From a virus: a stretch of DNA of 20,659 bases. Below are positions 1,763-17,921 of this stretch, piece after piece. Each line of letters begins with the position of its first letter. Positions within the stretch are counted from its first letter, which is position 1. The stretch covers positions 1-20,659 of the IMG/VR virus record IMGVR_UViG_3300047463_000283; one strand, 5' to 3'. The notes below the pieces were generated by a model. The model did no database searches and was not told the DNA's origin. It saw only the letters and a list, made by a program, of their open reading frames with translations. A program made the position numbers and the translations under genes.

Positions 1763-4342
1763 TTAATTAATCATAATGCTGAATGGTAGTGGATCTCTGG
1801 CTTCACCTTCTGTGTCATCAAACACATCCCGCATCAGTTCGCCCACACGGTCATCCCAGTTTGTAACCATCTGCATTAGACGCACACACAGTATGGTGCT
1901 CATTACACAGTCATCGTGCTCACCAGTTTTGGCTTTGAATCCATCTCCTGTTGCTACGAAAAACTTTAATTGTTTCACCAGCATTTTGCTGCGTATATGC
2001 AGTTTATTGCTTTCAATCAAACTCTTTAATTTTGCACACGCTGCTGCTTTTGTTCTGCCGTTGGTGTTCAATCCACGACGAATTCTCACCATACCAGTTT
2101 TTCTGGGTTCATTCAGTAACTGTCCCTGGAAATTTTCTTCGCCAATATCCAGGATAGTTTGCAGTGCAGCCTCACCCATTGTATTGTTTTCAAATGTATA
2201 ATAGATTTCCGGCTCGCCCTTTTGTCCGGCTTTTTTACAATCCTCGTGTATCTTGGCAATGGTATTTTGAAGTATTCTCACCTGCTGTGGAATGGGTGTT
2301 CTATTACTGGTCCATTCTGCTACTTGAACCATATCAGGCAGGCTCCAGACCTCTATCGCAGCATAGTCTTTGCCAACTCCCTGACTTGGGTCAAGACTTA
2401 CAAGATATGTTTTACCAGCGGCTGGCTTTTCATACCATCTTACATCAGCGGTTCTGTAGATAGGGTCTACACCTCGCATTCTTTGTAGAGCCATACTGCT
2501 TATGAGAGTGCTTTCTTCACCGGCAAAGATGCACTCGTATTCTCGTTGAAATTTTTCAGCACCAATCTTGGCTCGCTCAGTTTCTGCCCATTCATCATCT
2601 CTGCCAGGCACATCGCTGTAGTGGGCACTGAAACTTTTGAAACCATTCACACCGATCCCGTCTGGTCTTTCATTACCACGCTCATCTATGGTGTTGATAG
2701 CACCCAACCAGATTTGTGCAAACATATCTTCATCACTGGCAGGAGTGGATGTAATGATGCATTTACCACCGGTTGCAAGTGTTGGCGACATTGCCGTCCA
2801 GAATTCACTGGCCACCCTGGGTTTAACGAACGCAAACTCGTCTAGATATAATAAACTGATACTCATACCGCGACCACTATCTGGTGTAGTAGTTGTGGCA
2901 ACAATTCTACTGCCATTATCAAACCGAATACTGGTAACATTGTATTCAACAACACCACAACGAATTGTATTGGGCATTTCTTCATAAGCGTATTTGATAC
3001 GCATCATAATTTCACTGGCTGCCTTGAATTTGTTAGCAGCAATCAACACCGTGACATCATCGTGGAACATAGCATACCATAGCAAATAGCCTGCTGCAGT
3101 GGTGGTGTTGTGGGTTGGCACCATAGTTTTTCCGCAAAGAAAAAGATGGCGTTCATCACTAACCTGTATACAACGCACAGGCACACTTTCAACGGGAATA
3201 ATGTCAGTAATATATAAGCGTGTGTTTTTGGGATGATTATGGGCTTTATGCAGTCTTGTTAATTTTCTGTTTAATCTAACAACATCGAAGGTGTTTGTGG
3301 TGAATACCAAAATATTATAAATCTGCCCATTTACAGTTTTCTTTCTGTGGCGACTCTTAATTCCAAGGCTTGAAAGCAGTTCTCTAACTTGTAGTATAAG
3401 AGTTTCATTCTTTTGATAAAATTCACAGTGTCCACCTGGATCAATACTTCCATCTGTATCCATTAACCCCTGTAATAGTTCTAATCTTTGTTGAATTGAA
3501 CCACGAAGATAAGATTGTGGAATGTGTTTATTTTTAAGGACACCTAGTTGCCTTAATAGGGGTCTAATACCATAAATGGTTCTGATGTGACTATTAGTGC
3601 TGTTAATTCTTGGCTTACTCAGTGTATATCCATCCACTTGTATGAATTGGGAAATTTCTTCATCATCTATAACAGATTGTGTATATCGTCCATCATAACT
3701 ATTTCCATCACCAAGCCATACTCCAAGAGTATATGGTTTAATCAATAGTTCTTGTTCAGGTAATTCAACTGCTTCCCCAGTCTCAATATACATACGACGA
3801 TTTTCTTGTGGGTTAGAAAACAGATATTCCCATATTTCTTCAGTTGTTCTTGTCTGTCGCTTCTTGGACCAATAGGAAGAAGTAACTTCCCATAAATGCT
3901 CTGCATCTGCGACAACTATCTCTCCATTATCAAACTTAACCTGATAACATTTTCTGTCATACATAATTTCGGTTGCAAATGTAACAGTGGTTGGTTTTCC
4001 CGTTGCACCTAAAATTTGGTCACCAACTTTAATATCACCCATGGTTGTCCAACCAGACGGTGTAGGAATTGGTGTATCCAGAGACAGTGCCTTGCCACTC
4101 TGCCTAGGTATCATTGCCACAGTATTTTTATACTGCCAATAGGTTTTTACTAGGTCTCGTTGAAACTCATAGGCAGTAAATGGTTGTCTGCCCCGTGTAG
4201 GATGTTGTATATACATGTGGTTCTCCATGAAATACAGAGGGTCCTTCATGCATTTGCTAAATTCTATCAATTCTTGTTGTGTATATGAGACTTTCATACC
4301 TGCTGGTTTAAGTTTTTGAAAGTCTGTGGTATTTTTTGCCAT
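1763..4342 (-). CDS. terL: Terminase large subunit (gp17/TerL) containing an intein
   Basis: This is the DNA-packaging motor ATPase and headful nuclease. The reading frame is 859 residues; removing the intein (85-412) leaves 531, near the size of aquatic T4-like gp17 and shorter than T4's 610. The Walker A PRQSGK ends at K84 and resumes as TTTAAG at T413. Walker B is LLYLDEF, with D501 and E502. The coupling motif is IITSTPAS (529-536). RNase H-like nuclease residues are D651 (SLDPSQG), E718 (TFENN) and D810/D811 (EHDDC), matching the acidic triad of T4 gp17. The start has GAGG upstream, overlapping the stop of the Usg-like gene at 4350, so translation may be coupled. TerS lies further upstream in the same leftward run. 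Packaging would require intein splicing because the P-loop is split. Confidence 0.97.
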   Translation of the reverse strand: MAKNTTDFQKLKPAGMKVSYTQQELIEFSKCMKDPLYFMENHMYIQHPTRGRQPFTAYEFQRDLVKTYWQYKNTVAMIPRQSGKALSLDTPIPTPSGWTTMGDIKVGDQILGATGKPTTVTFATEIMYDRKCYQVKFDNGEIVVADAEHLWEVTSSYWSKKRQTRTTEEIWEYLFSNPQENRRMYIETGEAVELPEQELLIKPYTLGVWLGDGNSYDGRYTQSVIDDEEISQFIQVDGYTLSKPRINSTNSHIRTIYGIRPLLRQLGVLKNKHIPQSYLRGSIQQRLELLQGLMDTDGSIDPGGHCEFYQKNETLILQVRELLSSLGIKSRHRKKTVNGQIYNILVFTTNTFDVVRLNRKLTRLHKAHNHPKNTRLYITDIIPVESVPVRCIQVSDERHLFLCGKTMVPTHNTTTAAGYLLWYAMFHDDVTVLIAANKFKAASEIMMRIKYAYEEMPNTIRCGVVEYNVTSIRFDNGSRIVATTTTPDSGRGMSISLLYLDEFAFVKPRVASEFWTAMSPTLATGGKCIITSTPASDEDMFAQIWLGAINTIDERGNERPDGIGVNGFKSFSAHYSDVPGRDDEWAETERAKIGAEKFQREYECIFAGEESTLISSMALQRMRGVDPIYRTADVRWYEKPAAGKTYLVSLDPSQGVGKDYAAIEVWSLPDMVQVAEWTSNRTPIPQQVRILQNTIAKIHEDCKKAGQKGEPEIYYTFENNTMGEAALQTILDIGEENFQGQLLNEPRKTGMVRIRRGLNTNGRTKAAACAKLKSLIESNKLHIRSKMLVKQLKFFVATGDGFKAKTGEHDDCVMSTILCVRLMQMVTNWDDRVGELMRDVFDDTEGEARDPLPFSIMIN
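3107..4090 (-). mobile_element. Intein with LAGLIDADG homing endonuclease, class 3 type, in the TerL P-loop
   Basis: In-frame insert of 328 residues (A85-N412 of the TerL frame). It starts ALSLDTPIPTPSGW with Ala at position 1 instead of Cys or Ser, continues with the block A pattern (IKVGDQILG), and ends VPTHN before extein Thr413. Block B has H149-L-W151. Block F has Cys391 (VRCIQV). Together W151, C391 and T413 make the Trp/Cys/Thr signature that defines class 3 inteins, which start splicing from the internal Cys rather than residue 1. Two dodecapeptide motifs, LGVWLGDG (206-213) and LLQGLMDTDG (289-298), mark a LAGLIDADG endonuclease with apparently intact acidic residues. The insertion falls between K84 and T413 of Walker A, a typical highly conserved ATPase site. 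Confidence 0.93.
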
Positions 4343-10415: not shown

Positions 10416-10946
10416 TTATGCAGGACAGCATACTAAATGAATTCTAGGTTCCCATCCACCATTAAACACAAAATGCTCTCTAGTTGTATCAACTTTATAC
10501 CAGTAGCCATTTGCTGGTATATGATAGCACATGGCTCTCACAGGACTGTGATTGAAGCATTCTCCGAATATTGCACTTATGTTAGTTTGTAGCACTAGAT
10601 GATAACGTGGTTGATGGTCATAATGCATACTCAACCCTTGTTTTGGACCTGCTAGCATAAATCTAATCCGCCCCCAAGATATGTTTTCCTGTTTTGCCAG
10701 ATTTAGCAATATTTCCTTTGTATATTCTGGACAATCGGCATTCCATTGTGAGAAAAGTAGTTCTTCTTGTTTGTTTGGTAGACCTCCCACAGAATCTTTC
10801 CAAGGGTTTTCGCATAGGTCTCTGTGTCGCAATCCTATTTGTCTATCAGGTTCCCAGGTACAATGATTATTCAAAATATAATCCAGATCATCTCGCACTC
10901 GTTGAATGTCCACATGATAATCTAACTTTTGAATAAATTCGTTCAT
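10416..10946 (-). CDS. 2-oxoglutarate/Fe(II) oxygenase-like protein (Asp/Asn hydroxylase type)
   Basis: 176 residues. The double-stranded beta-helix iron site is visible: H108-Y-D110 in LSMHYDH, distal H158 in REHFVFNGGW, and R168 in PRIHLV for 2-oxoglutarate. The pattern PRYHLVLQTN and NGGWEPRIHLV matches phage and cyanophage proteins grouped with aspartyl/asparaginyl beta-hydroxylases. Such enzymes hydroxylate protein side chains or small molecules; the substrate here is unknown. ATG overlaps the stop of the methyltransferase-like gene by four bases, indicating coupling. The pair sits between sheath and tube genes, so a virion protein could be a target, but this is speculation. Confidence 0.85.
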   Translation of the reverse strand: MNEFIQKLDYHVDIQRVRDDLDYILNNHCTWEPDRQIGLRHRDLCENPWKDSVGGLPNKQEELLFSQWNADCPEYTKEILLNLAKQENISWGRIRFMLAGPKQGLSMHYDHQPRYHLVLQTNISAIFGECFNHSPVRAMCYHIPANGYWYKVDTTREHFVFNGGWEPRIHLVCCPA

Positions 10947-12055: not shown

Positions 12056-15000
12056 TTAACCTCCCTTGGGCAGGGTTGCTCCAGTTGCCATAACTCTTAC
12101 TGGAATATATATAAATTCAATCGATTTTTCAGGTTGAATTGCTATATCAATCCAGAGTTGATTGGCATCTATTCTAACAGGAGTATTATTGCTGCTATCA
12201 CAGATCACGGAGAAATCATATAGAGCACGCAAACCTACAAGTCCGTTTAGATAGCCCTTGAACACTGCTGTTACATTTGTTCTTGTTTGAGTGTCATTTT
12301 GTTCAAACAAGAATGGTTGTGCTAACTGATTAAGATGCCAAGAAAGATATGCACAGAGACGTGCAACATTTACACGGTCAAGAGCAGTTGCAATTGGGTC
12401 TAGGGTTTTTTGACCAAATACAACTAGTCCACGACCCGGCATGTATGCGATAGGATTAATGCTATTTGCATAAAGCACATCGCGTTGTCCCTGGGTCAGC
12501 TTTACTGGAACATAATATCCAGATGAATCTAGATATCCAACACTACTAACAACACTGACAAGTCCTCTGGTAAATCCTGCTGGTGCAAACCATGGATATG
12601 CCACTGAGTCGTTATAGGCAATGGTTGTCAAGGCAACTAAACTTGGGGGCACCAACACATCTGTACCTTGTAGATCCTGGGTTAGTCCCCATGGATACCA
12701 TAGTCCCATATATGGGCTATGGGTAATTAGTCCATCTGGTCCATTTTCAGCAACATCAGCTGCATTGGTTGCCCAATTCTGAATTGCTGTTCCAGTTGGT
12801 ACCAGTGTGCTTGGAGTGTCACCGATGACAAATGCGACATTATTGATATCTACATTTAATTGTACCATTTGTGCGATACATTCTGGATAACCAGGAGCAG
12901 ATATAAGTGAATAATAGTTATCTTGTGCACGAATATCCTGATTGGTTTCAAATGCACTGTTCATAGCAGCAACAACCACTGCTCGTTGAGCAGCAGGACC
13001 CATGTATGCAACACCATTAGGAGCATTGCCACTGAATGTTACCCATGTGTCTGTTGGATAAGCAGTACCAAGATTTTGTGGGAATGCACTAACAGTCCAC
13101 TTCTTAACGTTATAAGTACTGTAACGTGTGTTGAAAAGTAACATATAGGGAGGATACAGTAGTGGATCAGGGGCATCTGGATCTAGAACTGGTGCAGATT
13201 GACCTACAGTTCTATTCATAGCGGCGGGCACTTGACTCCCACTTGTAGTACCATCAGCAGTATAACGAGCATCTGCAAATATTATTCCTGCACTGGATGC
13301 ATGGTCGGTGTTATCAATTTGAATCCAAGATGCAGTAGATGCATTATATCTACTAATCTGTGGATATGGCTTCATATCAGTATTGATCCAAAGGTCATAA
13401 TCACTCAGTGGTGAACCTGTACTTTGAGTCAATGGAATTGCTGAACTTAGGATTGGTCCATTTGGATCAGTTCCAGGATACAAATTGCCGTAACATTGCC
13501 ACACAGTTCCTGTATTGACAAGTATATCTGCTCGCAATTCAGTATTATACCAAAGTGTACCATCGGATGGAGGACCAGCAGGTTCACTGATACTGGATAC
13601 ATATTGCAAATTCATCCACTGGAAACCATCCCAGTAATTTAGAAGTACATTTGCAGTGACAGGCATATCATCGTAATAATTATATTGACCGTAGATACTA
13701 CCATAGGCTTTTAAAGCACCAAAGGCCGTATCAGCAGCACTATCACCGGTATACAGTGGTATATTTCCTGTATTAGGTGTAGAGTTTTGACTTACCCACT
13801 CACCACTTTCATATCTCTTCACTACAAGATTGACGCCGTTTCCAGCAGGTGTAGTATTGATCCAGACATTTTCTGCTTTTAGAGCAGACAGTGAAGATGG
13901 TACAGTTAGGGTCGGAGCATAGCCTTGATAGACCATTCCTCGCCCGAATGTCGTACCAGTAGCAATACCTGCTGTTTTTAATGGAGTGCCTGACAAGTCA
14001 GCAAGTGAAAATGCAGTTCCGTTTGTGTTTGTGATCACAAGTTGATTTGAACTGTTTGTTGAAGCAACAATCGGACCACTTGGGAAAGCAACAGTATTGA
14101 TTTGCTGTACCAGCTGTGCTAGGGTTGCGTAGTTAATAGATGGACTGAGTGATGCTGGAACATGAACAGTTACTGGACTTTGACCAGGAATTGTCACACT
14201 AAAGCTGTTACTTGTTAAGAATCCAGATGTCAGTGCAAATGTTGCACCCGTACCTGAACCACCAGATACACTCACAGTACCAACTGGGTATACGGTATAA
14301 TTACCAGCAACAGCCACGTTTGTTGTATTAACACCCCAAACAATTGTAAATGTTGCATTTTGTCCAACACCACTTGTTGCGCTTACTGGTACATCGGAAG
14401 TTGGTGCAGTAAGCCCCGTGTACTGACCGTTTTGAATTATATTAACAGATTCAATTGCACCATTGTTGATTGCTTCAACCACAGCAACTATTGTGGTTGT
14501 GTAATTGGAATCAGATATCCCAAATGTAATAGTATCGTTTACTCGGTATCCAGTTCCAGAAGCACCACCAGTTGGCACCAAACTTACAGCTTCTAGGCTT
14601 TGGACTGAAAGTTGAGTTGCAGTTGAATGGGTTCCGCCAATAACTGTCAAAGTATCTCCAACAACATATCCAGACCCAGGAGCAATAACCCCGGCAGACT
14701 GAGTGAGAAGAGTTGCGGCAACAAATGTAGGTTGACTTGCGGTTCCTGTGACAGATGCCCAATATGTATTGGTTGTTGGAATGCCAGCAAGTGCAAGTGT
14801 TGTCCCTACACCGTTTTGGTCGGTGAGGTCCTGTAGTTTAACAGATGTTGCATCATAATTTGTTAGTGTGAGATATTTTGATGCTCCATTAACTGTAATG
14901 GTAGCAATTGTGTTTGTACTTGCAAGAGCAGTATTAATTGTACTTACTAATCCAGGAAGAGATGTATCTCCAACTGTAACGGTAATGGGTGATGCGTTAT

Positions 15001-16159
15001 CAATTGATATTGTGAATTGATGACCCGTAACAAAAACTGGATTTGCAGATGTTCCTGTGATCACAGTTGGAACGGCGCCAATCCATGAATATCCAGGATA
15101 TTCAATTTCTCCACTACCAACTGGGAACCACCAAGTATTTGTGGTTTGGCTTGTAGCCAGAGTGATCATCTGGAAAACGGTATTTGTATAATTACCCATT
15201 TCATCGGCAAGCGTATTGACGGCATAATTTCCAGAAATTCCCAAAGACATGACGGGCTCAATTACTGTCAAAGGCTCGTCAGTACGGGAAAACCCTAAAT
15301 CATCCAGAATGGTAGGCATAGAAGATGGTGAACCTCCTTCACTGAAAAAGGTAAATGGTACACGGCAATTTGAATTAGTAAGACGTATATTGCAAATATC
15401 ACCAACTGAGTTGGATGTTAATTTTGCTGTACGTGTAAAGATAGTAGCTGTTATTCCTTGAATCTTTAATTGAGAGTTGGCATTTATTGCACTAACAACT
15501 CCGGCCAGACTTTGACCTGCGGTTAGCGGAACTGCCACGCCATTTATCACGAGATTTCCGCTATAAGATATAGCTGCAACAGAACTACTAGTTAGAGGTC
15601 CGCCAATATTACGATTGCCCTGTGTTACGGCGCAAAGTTTATTATCACTAGAAATTACAATAGGCTTTTGTGATTGCCATGCATATGCTGGATTGATGTT
15701 TCCGTTACTCTGGAATATTCCCCAGGTTGAATTCTGTGTATCTAACCAATATGTACCATTCAATGTTGGACCTGTTGGTGTAGAGGTATTGGGCACTAGT
15801 TGTTCTAGATCAACATTTGCACGAATTACATATGCACTATTTGCCACACCCAGGTATTGATAAAGAGTGAATAGTCCTATCTCGTTTAGTTCATTATCAT
15901 ACTGAGCACTTCCAGCTGCACTATAGAAAGTTGGATTGCCAAATGTTTGAAGAGCATCTCGTTGACTTGTAATTAGATACAAATCTCCGGCATTTTGTGG
16001 AAGAGTTCCTGGTGCAATATTTGTAGTTGAACCTGGCGCTAGTTTATTAGCAGCCGTGGCGATTACAATAAGTGGAACAGTTCCTGGACCTGATGCTCCG
16101 TAAGCACTTTCATCAATGATGCTTACTTTTACGCCTGGTGAAACTAGAGAACCTGACAT
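12056..16159 (-). CDS. 18: Tail sheath protein gp18, greatly enlarged
   Basis: 1367 residues, about twice T4 gp18 (659). It forms the contractile sheath around the tube. Sheath parts are the N terminus (SLVSPGVKVSIIDES...VPLIVIATAANK, 1-115) and the C-terminal 300 residues (AVVVAAMNSAFETNQDIRAQ, GRGLVVFGQKTLDPIATALD, RVNVARLCAYLSWHLNQ, EFIYIPVRVMATG). Between them lie extra surface domains: three repeats like the flagellin/FliD IN motif (about 197-290, 380-462, 648-736), Gly-rich repeats GSGYVVGDTLTV and GTGYRVNDTITF (about 494-645), and four Trp-containing modules of the type DLWINT...SW (about 130-160, 761-790, 863-890, 916-949). The start has GAGG six bases upstream and a late box. A strong terminator follows. 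The frame is unbroken, so the insertion is presumably functional. Confidence 0.95.
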   Translation of the reverse strand: MSGSLVSPGVKVSIIDESAYGASGPGTVPLIVIATAANKLAPGSTTNIAPGTLPQNAGDLYLITSQRDALQTFGNPTFYSAAGSAQYDNELNEIGLFTLYQYLGVANSAYVIRANVDLEQLVPNTSTPTGPTLNGTYWLDTQNSTWGIFQSNGNINPAYAWQSQKPIVISSDNKLCAVTQGNRNIGGPLTSSSVAAISYSGNLVINGVAVPLTAGQSLAGVVSAINANSQLKIQGITATIFTRTAKLTSNSVGDICNIRLTNSNCRVPFTFFSEGGSPSSMPTILDDLGFSRTDEPLTVIEPVMSLGISGNYAVNTLADEMGNYTNTVFQMITLATSQTTNTWWFPVGSGEIEYPGYSWIGAVPTVITGTSANPVFVTGHQFTISIDNASPITVTVGDTSLPGLVSTINTALASTNTIATITVNGASKYLTLTNYDATSVKLQDLTDQNGVGTTLALAGIPTTNTYWASVTGTASQPTFVAATLLTQSAGVIAPGSGYVVGDTLTVIGGTHSTATQLSVQSLEAVSLVPTGGASGTGYRVNDTITFGISDSNYTTTIVAVVEAINNGAIESVNIIQNGQYTGLTAPTSDVPVSATSGVGQNATFTIVWGVNTTNVAVAGNYTVYPVGTVSVSGGSGTGATFALTSGFLTSNSFSVTIPGQSPVTVHVPASLSPSINYATLAQLVQQINTVAFPSGPIVASTNSSNQLVITNTNGTAFSLADLSGTPLKTAGIATGTTFGRGMVYQGYAPTLTVPSSLSALKAENVWINTTPAGNGVNLVVKRYESGEWVSQNSTPNTGNIPLYTGDSAADTAFGALKAYGSIYGQYNYYDDMPVTANVLLNYWDGFQWMNLQYVSSISEPAGPPSDGTLWYNTELRADILVNTGTVWQCYGNLYPGTDPNGPILSSAIPLTQSTGSPLSDYDLWINTDMKPYPQISRYNASTASWIQIDNTDHASSAGIIFADARYTADGTTSGSQVPAAMNRTVGQSAPVLDPDAPDPLLYPPYMLLFNTRYSTYNVKKWTVSAFPQNLGTAYPTDTWVTFSGNAPNGVAYMGPAAQRAVVVAAMNSAFETNQDIRAQDNYYSLISAPGYPECIAQMVQLNVDINNVAFVIGDTPSTLVPTGTAIQNWATNAADVAENGPDGLITHSPYMGLWYPWGLTQDLQGTDVLVPPSLVALTTIAYNDSVAYPWFAPAGFTRGLVSVVSSVGYLDSSGYYVPVKLTQGQRDVLYANSINPIAYMPGRGLVVFGQKTLDPIATALDRVNVARLCAYLSWHLNQLAQPFLFEQNDTQTRTNVTAVFKGYLNGLVGLRALYDFSVICDSSNNTPVRIDANQLWIDIAIQPEKSIEFIYIPVRVMATGATLPKGG
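13940..15577 (-). repeat. Inserted repeat region of the sheath (flagellin-IN-like and GxGY repeats)
   Basis: Covers sheath residues about 195-740. Three divergent units share the order: a strand with ING or a similar turn, V-x-V or V-P-L, a helix ending in INA/INT, then a strand pair ending in a leucine/glycine (LDDLGF, LALAGI, LKTAGI). This order resembles the flagellin hook IN motif. Between units two and three lie Gly-rich repeats with GYxVxDTxTxxG. Identity at the protein level is low, so no clear DNA repeat is expected. Confidence 0.65.
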
Positions 16160-16872: not shown

Positions 16873-17432
16873 AGTCTATTTGTTTCAGTGGTGGAGCAAC
16901 TGGTGCGGACCACGCATGGGGTCTAATGGCAGTGGATAACGGTCATGACCTTGTACATTTCACCTTTAGACAGCACCGTCCCGCAGTAAATGAAAATTTA
17001 AAAGTTCTCACTGATGCGGAATTAATGGAAGCAGAGCCCTATGTTGCTGCTGCAGCCAAGCCAATGCGAAGAAAATATCCAGCAAAAAAAGAAGGTATCA
17101 ATAATCTTCTACGTAGAAATTGGTTTCAAATCCGATTTGCCCAACGAGTCTATGCAGTTGCCAATTTAGTAGAGGATGATCCAGGCACACTGAAAATTTC
17201 CGGGGGCACTGCTTGGGCATGTCAAATGTATGTGAACAGATGGTACACTGAAAGAAATTTTCCAGAATGTGAATTATATCTGTTTGACATGCAGACAAAC
17301 ACCTGGATGCAGTGGTGGGAAACCTGGAAGACAATAAAAAAGCCGCCAGTCCCAACAGGCAGATATGCTGGAATAGGCAGCCGTGAGATTACTGATGCTG
17401 GTATTCGTGCTATATTTGAGGTTTATGGATAA
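16869..17432 (+). CDS. SLOG/DprA-like Rossmann protein
   Basis: 187 residues. The N terminus ICFSGGATGADHAWGLMA (4-21) is the nucleotide/ligand-binding SGGAxGAD motif of the SLOG superfamily (DprA, LOG, DUF2493). A second Gly-rich turn ISGGTAWACQM lies near residue 110. The C terminus YAGIGSREITDAGI (from 166) resembles the segment that usually opens SLOG domains, here placed last, as if the domain were permuted or a second one begun and cut short. Relatives of this arrangement occur in phages, without a known function; SLOG proteins bind nucleotides or nucleotide-derived ligands. It is coupled to the kinase by a four-base overlap and converges with pth2 (10-base tail overlap), suggesting nucleotide metabolism. 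Confidence 0.8.
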   Translation: MKSICFSGGATGADHAWGLMAVDNGHDLVHFTFRQHRPAVNENLKVLTDAELMEAEPYVAAAAKPMRRKYPAKKEGINNLLRRNWFQIRFAQRVYAVANLVEDDPGTLKISGGTAWACQMYVNRWYTERNFPECELYLFDMQTNTWMQWWETWKTIKKPPVPTGRYAGIGSREITDAGIRAIFEVYG

Positions 17433-17872
17433 AGTTCAAAGTTTTTGAACAGACTTGTGAACCCAATATCATCCTTGTCACCATAAAACCATGCACAGGT
17501 AGTTTCTGGGCGAACCATTAGTACCCTGCCATCTTCGTAAGTTTTTACAATTTTTGTATCCTGATTCTGTGGAATAAGATCAGCGATTTCCATATTAGGC
17601 ACAATGAATGGATAGGAAGGGTCCAGAACTCTACCACGAAGCCAGATGGATTCACTTGTAAAATCCAGCATAGAATTGATACCGTAAAGGGTTGAACCCA
17701 ATACAATTGTCGTGCCAAACCCATCTGCCTGTTGTTTATACGATTGCATGGTTTCATAATGACCATATTTTGCCATCATTTGCACACCTGCATGATGTAC
17801 CTGTGCGGCCGCCTTGCCTGGGTTTAGGCTAGGAAGGTCTTTCCTCAACAAAACATACACTACTTGATCCAT
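17423..17872 (-). CDS. pth2: Peptidyl-tRNA hydrolase 2 (PTH2) family protein
   Basis: 149 residues. It begins with YVLLRKDLPSLNPGKAAAQV followed by HHAG, the PTH2 signature (D-L, GKxAAQxxHA), and has the later conserved patch (MVRPETTCAWFYGDKDD). PTH2 enzymes free tRNA from stalled peptidyl-tRNA, or in viruses may act on other tRNA-linked substrates. The start is ATG at 17872, chosen because AAAGGAG lies six bases upstream (17885-17879); a longer frame to 17902 has no ribosome site. A sigma70-like promoter lies upstream. It is the only leftward gene between the kinase/SLOG pair and gp13, and its promoter overlaps the gp13 stop. Similar genes occur in aquatic T4-like phages. Confidence 0.85.
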   Translation of the reverse strand: MDQVVYVLLRKDLPSLNPGKAAAQVHHAGVQMMAKYGHYETMQSYKQQADGFGTTIVLGSTLYGINSMLDFTSESIWLRGRVLDPSYPFIVPNMEIADLIPQNQDTKIVKTYEDGRVLMVRPETTCAWFYGDKDDIGFTSLFKNFELYP

Positions 17873-17894
17873 GATAATCTCCTTTGAGATTACT

Positions 17895-17921
17895 AGTATC
17901 ACACCACTGGATATTTGTCAA
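17895..17921 (-). promoter_or_regulatory. Sigma70-like promoter for pth2
   Basis: On the minus strand, a perfect TTGACA (17921-17916) and an extended -10, TGT-GATACT (GATACT at 17900-17895), 15 bases apart. The spacing is short, but the extended -10 compensates. It overlaps the end of gp13 and contrasts with the GATAAATA boxes of structural genes. Confidence 0.5.

What the first reader, a model, noticed from the sequence alone, without database searches (positions are those of the whole stretch)
3107..4090. Class 3 intein splitting the TerL Walker A motif
The insert begins with Ala, so it cannot use the standard N-terminal acyl shift. It carries W151 (block B), C391 (block F) and extein T413, the set that defines class 3 inteins as described in phage proteins. 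It sits between Lys and Thr of the P-loop, so packaging ATPase activity should be zero until splicing occurs. Both LAGLIDADG motifs look intact, so it may still home. A T4-like TerL with this intein class at this site would be a useful addition.
Basis: partly seen in the sequence, partly recalled or inferred. Interest (0 to 1): 0.75.

Follow-up and report, generated by a model that had tools for sequence, protein, structure and literature searches.

The report
Class 3 intein in phage terminase
A self-splicing, self-spreading protein segment (an intein of the less common 'class 3' type) interrupts the DNA-packaging motor gene of an uncultured phage at the exact codon of its ATP-binding loop; the reading is right, but the same kind of intein at the same spot is already common in many phages.

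Summary
Confirmed, and of a known kind. Window 3107-4090 (-) encodes a 328-residue intein splitting TerL (1763-4342) between Lys and Thr of Walker A (RQSGK|TTT). The borders are exact: a colinear contig with a 98.7% identical TerL C-extein (L056) has the empty site. The intein aligns without gaps to crystallised class 3 DnaB inteins: A1, H65, W67, C307, T326, N328. AlphaFold gives a HINT domain plus LAGLIDADG endonuclease (pLDDT 94.4; best fold match PI-SceI); both LAGLIDADG acids (D128, D213) are present. Correction: the Thr of the WCT triplet is T326 (TerL T410), inside the intein; T413 is the separate +1 nucleophile. Not novel in kind or site: all 49 full-length viral-contig relatives follow 'GK' with the same triplet, and isolates already carry it in TerL (Krischvirus ECD7, RaK2, cyanophage B23, mycobacteriophage Kanye). 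The intein is ~50% identical to cyanophage TerL inteins although the exteins share only ~31%, pointing to horizontal spread. Added value: the near-identical empty partner as a homing test pair, and sister phages whose same codon junction holds an unrelated, apparently split class 1 intein. Splicing and cleavage are inferred, not shown.

The parts
4091..4342 (-). TerL N-extein, residues 1-84, ending in Walker A ...IPRQSGK
   Evidence: 96% identical in the intein-free relative
3107..4090 (-). class 3 intein, 328 aa (TerL residues 85-412): HINT splicing domain with inserted LAGLIDADG endonuclease
   Evidence: borders shown by empty-site L056
4088..4090 (-). intein residue 1, Ala: no N-terminal nucleophile
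   Evidence: A, P or S in relatives
3890..3898 (-). block B H65-L66-W67 (TerL H149, W151): catalytic-triad His and Trp of the WCT triplet
   Evidence: ungapped alignment to MchDnaB1 H65/W67; invariant in 23 sequences
3701..3727 (-). LAGLIDADG motif 1 (LGVWLGDGN, residues 122-130; acid D128)
   Evidence: D128 invariant in 23 sequences; helix 119-128 in the model
3446..3478 (-). LAGLIDADG motif 2 (LLQGLMDTDGS, residues 205-215; acid D213)
   Evidence: helix 199-213; Pfam LAGLIDADG_3 201-261
3170..3172 (-). block F C307 (TerL C391): branch-point nucleophile, C of the WCT triplet
   Evidence: aligns with MchDnaB1 C124; invariant
3107..3115 (-). block G T326-H327-N328 (TerL T410-H411-N412): T of the WCT triplet, penultimate His, terminal Asn
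   Evidence: aligns with MchDnaB1 T143-N145; invariant
3104..3106 (-). +1 residue Thr413, Walker A Thr and acceptor of the second transesterification
   Evidence: T or S in relatives
1763..3106 (-). TerL C-extein, residues 413-859 (Walker B region LLYLDEF; RNase H-like nuclease) and stop
   Evidence: Pfam Terminase_6N E 7e-11; Terminase_6C 21.8 bits, just under its cut-off of 22.6; 98.7% identical in L056

Best explanation
A mobile cis-splicing class 3 intein. After translation of the whole 859-aa precursor, C307 (not residue 1) attacks the Lys84-Ala1 bond, helped by H65 and T326, giving a branched thioester; the +1 Thr413 takes over the N-extein; N328 cyclises and releases the 328-aa intein; an O-N shift makes the native Lys-Thr bond and restores Walker A of a 531-aa TerL. 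The inserted LAGLIDADG endonuclease probably cuts intein-free terL alleles at the same junction, so that the intein is copied in by recombination; the host gene is essential and the site nearly invariant, which protects the element from deletion. Shown: gene structure, exact borders, catalytic residues in register, predicted fold, empty-site allele, patchy distribution, intein/extein discordance. Inferred: that it splices, that the precursor is inactive as an ATPase, that the endonuclease cuts.
For: Ungapped register with crystallised class 3 inteins at both ends, placing H65, W67, C307, T326 on MchDnaB1 H65, W67, C124, T143. Residue 1 is Ala. WCT, block B His and terminal HN invariant across 23 aligned relatives. 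AF2 model pLDDT 94.4, pTM 0.92; Foldseek: PI-SceI 1ef0 E 2.9e-19, TM 0.80 by query, and class 3 DnaB intein 6bs8 over the splicing domain, TM 0.87 by target. Empty-site allele L056. Intein vs extein identity: cyanophage B23 49.5% vs 30.0%; RaK2 41.5% vs 42.8%; trees place the intein next to the cyanophage TerL inteins but the extein with jumbo-phage TerLs. Of 33 TerL relatives one (L079) has a class 3 intein, 22 are empty. Published TerL inteins splice fast and two (TerL1-b, -c) cut intein-free alleles (PMC5050341).
Against: No splicing, ATPase or cleavage assay exists for this intein. Its cut site is unknown. No co-conversion tract is visible round the site against L056, so there is no direct trace of a recent homing event in this pair. 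The nearest inteins are only 50-60% identical, so purifying selection on the endonuclease could not be measured.
Confidence: 0.95

Rival explanations
1. Class 3 intein that still splices but whose endonuclease is dead; it is inherited vertically in this phage line and lost elsewhere.
For: The closest intein, L079 (60%), lies in the same TerL clade; no co-conversion tract against L056; an intein relative with a damaged second motif exists (L002, LMDTGGS), so decay does happen.
Against: Both acids and the core motifs are intact and model confidence in that domain is high; the intein is far closer to cyanophage TerL inteins than the exteins are, so movement between lineages occurred at some time.
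Confidence: 0.25
2. A conditional switch: slow or redox-sensitive splicing through C307 delays packaging until late infection.
For: The site is in Walker A, so splicing gates activity in principle; mycobacterial DnaB inteins respond to oxidants and zinc (titles and abstracts PMC6195587, PMC8557812, PMC7360933).
Against: Five tested mycobacteriophage terminase inteins all splice fast (PMC5050341); the near-identical L056 does without the intein, so it is not needed for packaging control.
Confidence: 0.07
3. Class 1 or class 2 intein misread, or a degenerate non-splicing intein.
For: Lack of a residue 1 nucleophile is also seen in class 2 inteins (PMC7664689); a non-functional class 3 relative has been reported (PMC3196547, title and abstract).
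Against: Complete WCT triplet plus block B His and terminal HN in exact register; an unspliced intein in Walker A of terL should be lethal to the phage.
Confidence: 0.03

Closest known systems
TerL inteins of T4-like cyanophages (Synechococcus phage B23 b23_0267) and like viral contigs L002-L043
   Same: Class 3, LAGLIDADG, same GK|T/S junction of a T4-type TerL, about 328-331 aa
   Different: Host TerL only about 31% identical; intein 46-52% identical
Krischvirus ECD7 gp17 intein and Klebsiella jumbo phage RaK2 TerL intein
   Same: Class 3 with WCT at the same Walker A junction, in isolates; the RaK2/K64-1 TerL intein is noted in PMC5259590
   Different: 37-42% identical; other phage families
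TerL1-a inteins of mycobacteriophages (Kelley et al. 2016, PMC5050341)
   Same: Between the invariant Lys and Thr of the TerL P-loop; phage Kanye (Kostyavirus) carries a WCT intein there
   Different: Distant TerL family; extein about 15% identical to this one
Mycobacterial DnaB class 3 mini-inteins (6rix, 6bs8)
   Same: Splicing-domain sequence, fold and catalytic residues
   Different: Different host protein; no endonuclease in the solved inteins
PI-SceI (yeast VMA intein)
   Same: Overall HINT + LAGLIDADG architecture
   Different: Class 1 chemistry (Cys1, own knowledge), larger, 15-16% identical over the fold match

Membership tests
Class 3 intein | No N-terminal Cys/Ser nucleophile at residue 1 | tested here: met
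   Residue 1 is Ala
Class 3 intein | Trp at block B:12 | tested here: met
   W67 on MchDnaB1 W67, no gaps
Class 3 intein | Cys at block F:4 | tested here: met
   C307 on MchDnaB1 C124; invariant in 23
Class 3 intein | Thr at block G:5 | tested here: met
Class 3 intein | Terminal Asn and Cys/Ser/Thr at +1 | tested here: met
   N328, Thr413
Class 3 intein | HINT fold | tested here: met
   AF2 pLDDT 94.4; 6bs8 TM 0.87 by target length
Class 3 intein | Splicing through a block F branched thioester | not testable with these tools
   Needs biochemistry
LAGLIDADG homing endonuclease | Two LAGLIDADG motifs with their acids | tested here: met
   D128, D213; Pfam LAGLIDADG_3 above cut-off
LAGLIDADG homing endonuclease | Cuts the intein-free allele | not testable with these tools
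   Natural empty allele L056 found, no assay
T4-type terminase large subunit | ATPase domain with Walker A restored by splicing, and RNase H-like nuclease domain | tested here: met
   Terminase_6N above cut-off; Terminase_6C 21.8 bits against a cut-off of 22.6; phrog_36964 over residues 8-856

The most novel reading that the evidence does not exclude
The Walker A Lys|Thr codon junction of terL in this jumbo-type phage clade is a contested homing site: one lineage holds a cis class 3 intein with a LAGLIDADG endonuclease, sisters hold an unrelated split class 1 intein with a separate endonuclease gene, and the near-identical empty phage L056 (six substitutions within 16 bp of the junction, a Ser codon changed to Ala) may be a homing-resistant allele.
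Probability: 0.2. Interest if true: 0.5.

Novelty: new member of a known kind. Interest (0 to 1): 0.3.

Why it matters
It adds a clear class 3 intein with a natural, near-identical empty-site partner, which is what a clean homing and splicing test needs, and it shows one codon junction of an essential motor gene being occupied by different intein lineages in closely related phages. It does not change how class 3 inteins or their TerL site are understood.

Tried and rejected
Megablast of the whole window against phage isolates: no match. GC content of the intein (37.2% against 40.6% for the window; 16% of 984-bp windows are as low) and GC3 are not distinctive. Search for a co-conversion tract against L056: mismatch density near the site equals the background at 60-bp scale; only a small cluster at -13..+2 (binomial about 7e-4, chosen after seeing it). 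Cellular genomes: one scan, only three weak partial relatives (30-32%), so no host or prophage source seen. Class 1, class 2 and pseudogene readings rejected on the catalytic register. AceL-TerL/GOS-TerL as the same thing as the split inteins in sister phages: those have Cys at +1 (PMC11766414), so a different junction. Two original papers, on class 3 inteins (PMC3133030) and fractured genes (PMC2677866), were not held.

Full report
The observation. The minus strand of the window carries one open frame, 1763-4342, of 859 residues. It reads as a T4-type large terminase subunit interrupted after Walker A Lys84 by 328 residues and resuming with Thr413. Pfam finds Terminase_6N (413-620, above its cut-off) and a Terminase_6C match (649-816) of 21.8 bits, just under its cut-off of 22.6, in the C-extein, and LAGLIDADG_3 in the insert. 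phrog_36964, a terminase profile of 890 positions, matches residues 8-856 end to end, so an intein-bearing form is already part of a phage protein family. The window is a 20.7-kb uncultivated virus record; its neighbours include tail sheath, two tail tube proteins, head closure, a head-tail adaptor and endolysin. Its nearest TerL relatives among isolates are jumbo phages (Phosso, PA5oct/MIJ3, Atu_ph07, 50-53%).

Exact borders. TerL relatives in viral contigs were collected. L056 encodes a TerL whose C-extein is 98.7% identical and has no insert...IPRQAGK|TTTAAG. About 4.0 kb upstream and 3.1 kb downstream of the junction align at 91.7% and 93.6%; with the 984 bp left out, the flanks align to L056 with only 3 nt of net gap in 7.1 kb. 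This fixes the insert at 3107-4090.

Class. The PDB sequences closest to the insert are class 3 DnaB inteins of Mycobacterium (6rix, 6bs8; E to 5.5e-33), aligned ungapped over the first 69-72 and last 30-35 residues. This puts H65, W67, C307 and T326 on H65, W67, C124 and T143 of MchDnaB1, the catalytic triad plus the Trp of the WCT motif described in PMC7664689. PMC7891396 and PMC5050341 define the triplet as Trp B:12, Cys F:4, Thr G:5; the terminal tripeptide of class 3 inteins is THN (PMC12245125). The Thr is therefore T326 of the intein (TerL T410).

Fold. An alignment of 23 inteins from the window and viral contigs gave an AlphaFold2 model of mean pLDDT 94.4 and pTM 0.92. Foldseek finds PI-SceI first (1ef0, E 2.9e-19, TM 0.80 by query) and the class 3 DnaB inteins for the splicing domain (6bs8, TM 0.87 by target). 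The endonuclease acids D128 (invariant) and D213 (at least 90%) are present.

How common. tblastn finds 764 phage records, 604 with at least 80% coverage, all below 60% identity; PMC7891396 counted 1701 class 3 inteins in public proteins, 82.5% with LAGLIDADG motifs. In all 49 full-length viral-contig relatives read out, the intein follows 'GK' and has the block B Trp, block F Cys and THN end; 45 have T4-type TerL flanks, while L045-L047 and L052 have other exteins. Among isolates the same junction is occupied in cyanophage B23, RaK2, Krischvirus ECD7 (LSRQLGK|ALDVNT...FIPTHN|TTAV), Slicko01, mycobacteriophage Kanye and Vibrio phage 489E54-1; Nebkiss has it elsewhere in TerL. Kelley et al. named the Lys|Thr site TerL1-a and showed that terminase inteins splice quickly and that two of them cut intein-free alleles (PMC5050341).

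Movement. Intein identity to cyanophage TerL inteins (48-52%) exceeds extein identity to the same genes (30-32% for those read in full length); for RaK2 the two are equal (41.5 and 42.8%). The intein tree joins window + L079 with the cyanophage inteins; the extein tree joins window with L056, L057, L074 and L079, then with L086 and RaK2 (FastTree, moderate support in places). With 22 of 33 TerL relatives empty, the distribution fits repeated horizontal spread and loss.

Same junction, another intein. In L064-L067, L077 and L084-L086 the same Lys|Thr junction is occupied by a Cys-starting, class 1-like intein (...YDVSV..HRYYSNGILSHN|TTTAAG in L064) whose N part ends in a stop 37-59 residues after the Lys, and whose C part starts again at its own Met (123 residues in L064, L077 and L084). 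Four contigs agree at 99.8-100% over the L064 region, so this is not a stray sequencing error. An ORF overlapping or between the halves resembles MTES_1575/DUF559 nucleases: only weakly in L064 (E 0.1), better in L085 (DUF559, E 1.8e-4, above cut-off). Atu_ph07 shows a two-gene TerL of the same layout in an isolate, with Ser as first intein residue, and contiguous class 1-like relatives sit at the same junction in Ackermannviridae such as LIMEstone1 and Vibrio phage VP-1. The layout resembles the 'fractured gene' arrangement cited in PMC6892783; that the halves splice in trans is inferred from sequence only.

Homing resistance, a weak lead. Against L056 there are six differences between -13 and +2 of the junction, including Ser to Ala; the other printed members of the same TerL clade keep Ser. 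The region was chosen after looking, so this is only a lead.

Verdict. New member of a known kind; confidence in the identity 0.95, interest 0.3.

Noticed in passing
L064 2951-5344; L077 3138-5344; L084 3228-5257; L085/L086 980-5329: TerL relatives (49-77% identical) carry at the same Lys|Thr junction an apparently naturally split class 1 intein: N-extein + IntN of 37-59 aa ending in a stop, IntC + C-extein as a separate ORF with its own Met; a possible DUF559/MTES_1575-like nuclease ORF overlaps or lies between the halves in L064 and L085.
   Followed up: partly
L100 2674-4865 (Agrobacterium phage Atu_ph07): An isolate with TerL annotated as two genes (ASV44708, ASV44707); the halves look like N-extein + IntN and IntC + C-extein at the same junction, first intein residue Ser.
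   Followed up: partly
L056 around 4001; window 3104-4104: Six differences within -13..+2 of the intein junction between two otherwise about 93% identical phages; the empty allele changes a Ser codon that the other printed members of its TerL clade keep. Possible altered homing site.
   Followed up: partly
L002 4001-4990: Class 3 TerL intein with a damaged second LAGLIDADG motif (LMDTGGS) but intact splicing residues: a candidate for endonuclease decay.
   Followed up: no
window 12056-16159 (-): Tail sheath of 1367 aa, long for a sheath; the best family match starts near residue 674, so a large part upstream of it is unexplained.
   Followed up: no
window 10416-10946 (-): Aspartyl/asparaginyl beta-hydroxylase family protein (Pfam PF05118, E 2e-9) in the structural gene block.
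   Followed up: no
window 17423-17902 (-): Weak match to peptidyl-tRNA hydrolase PTH2 (E 2e-4, just below the curated cut-off).
   Followed up: no
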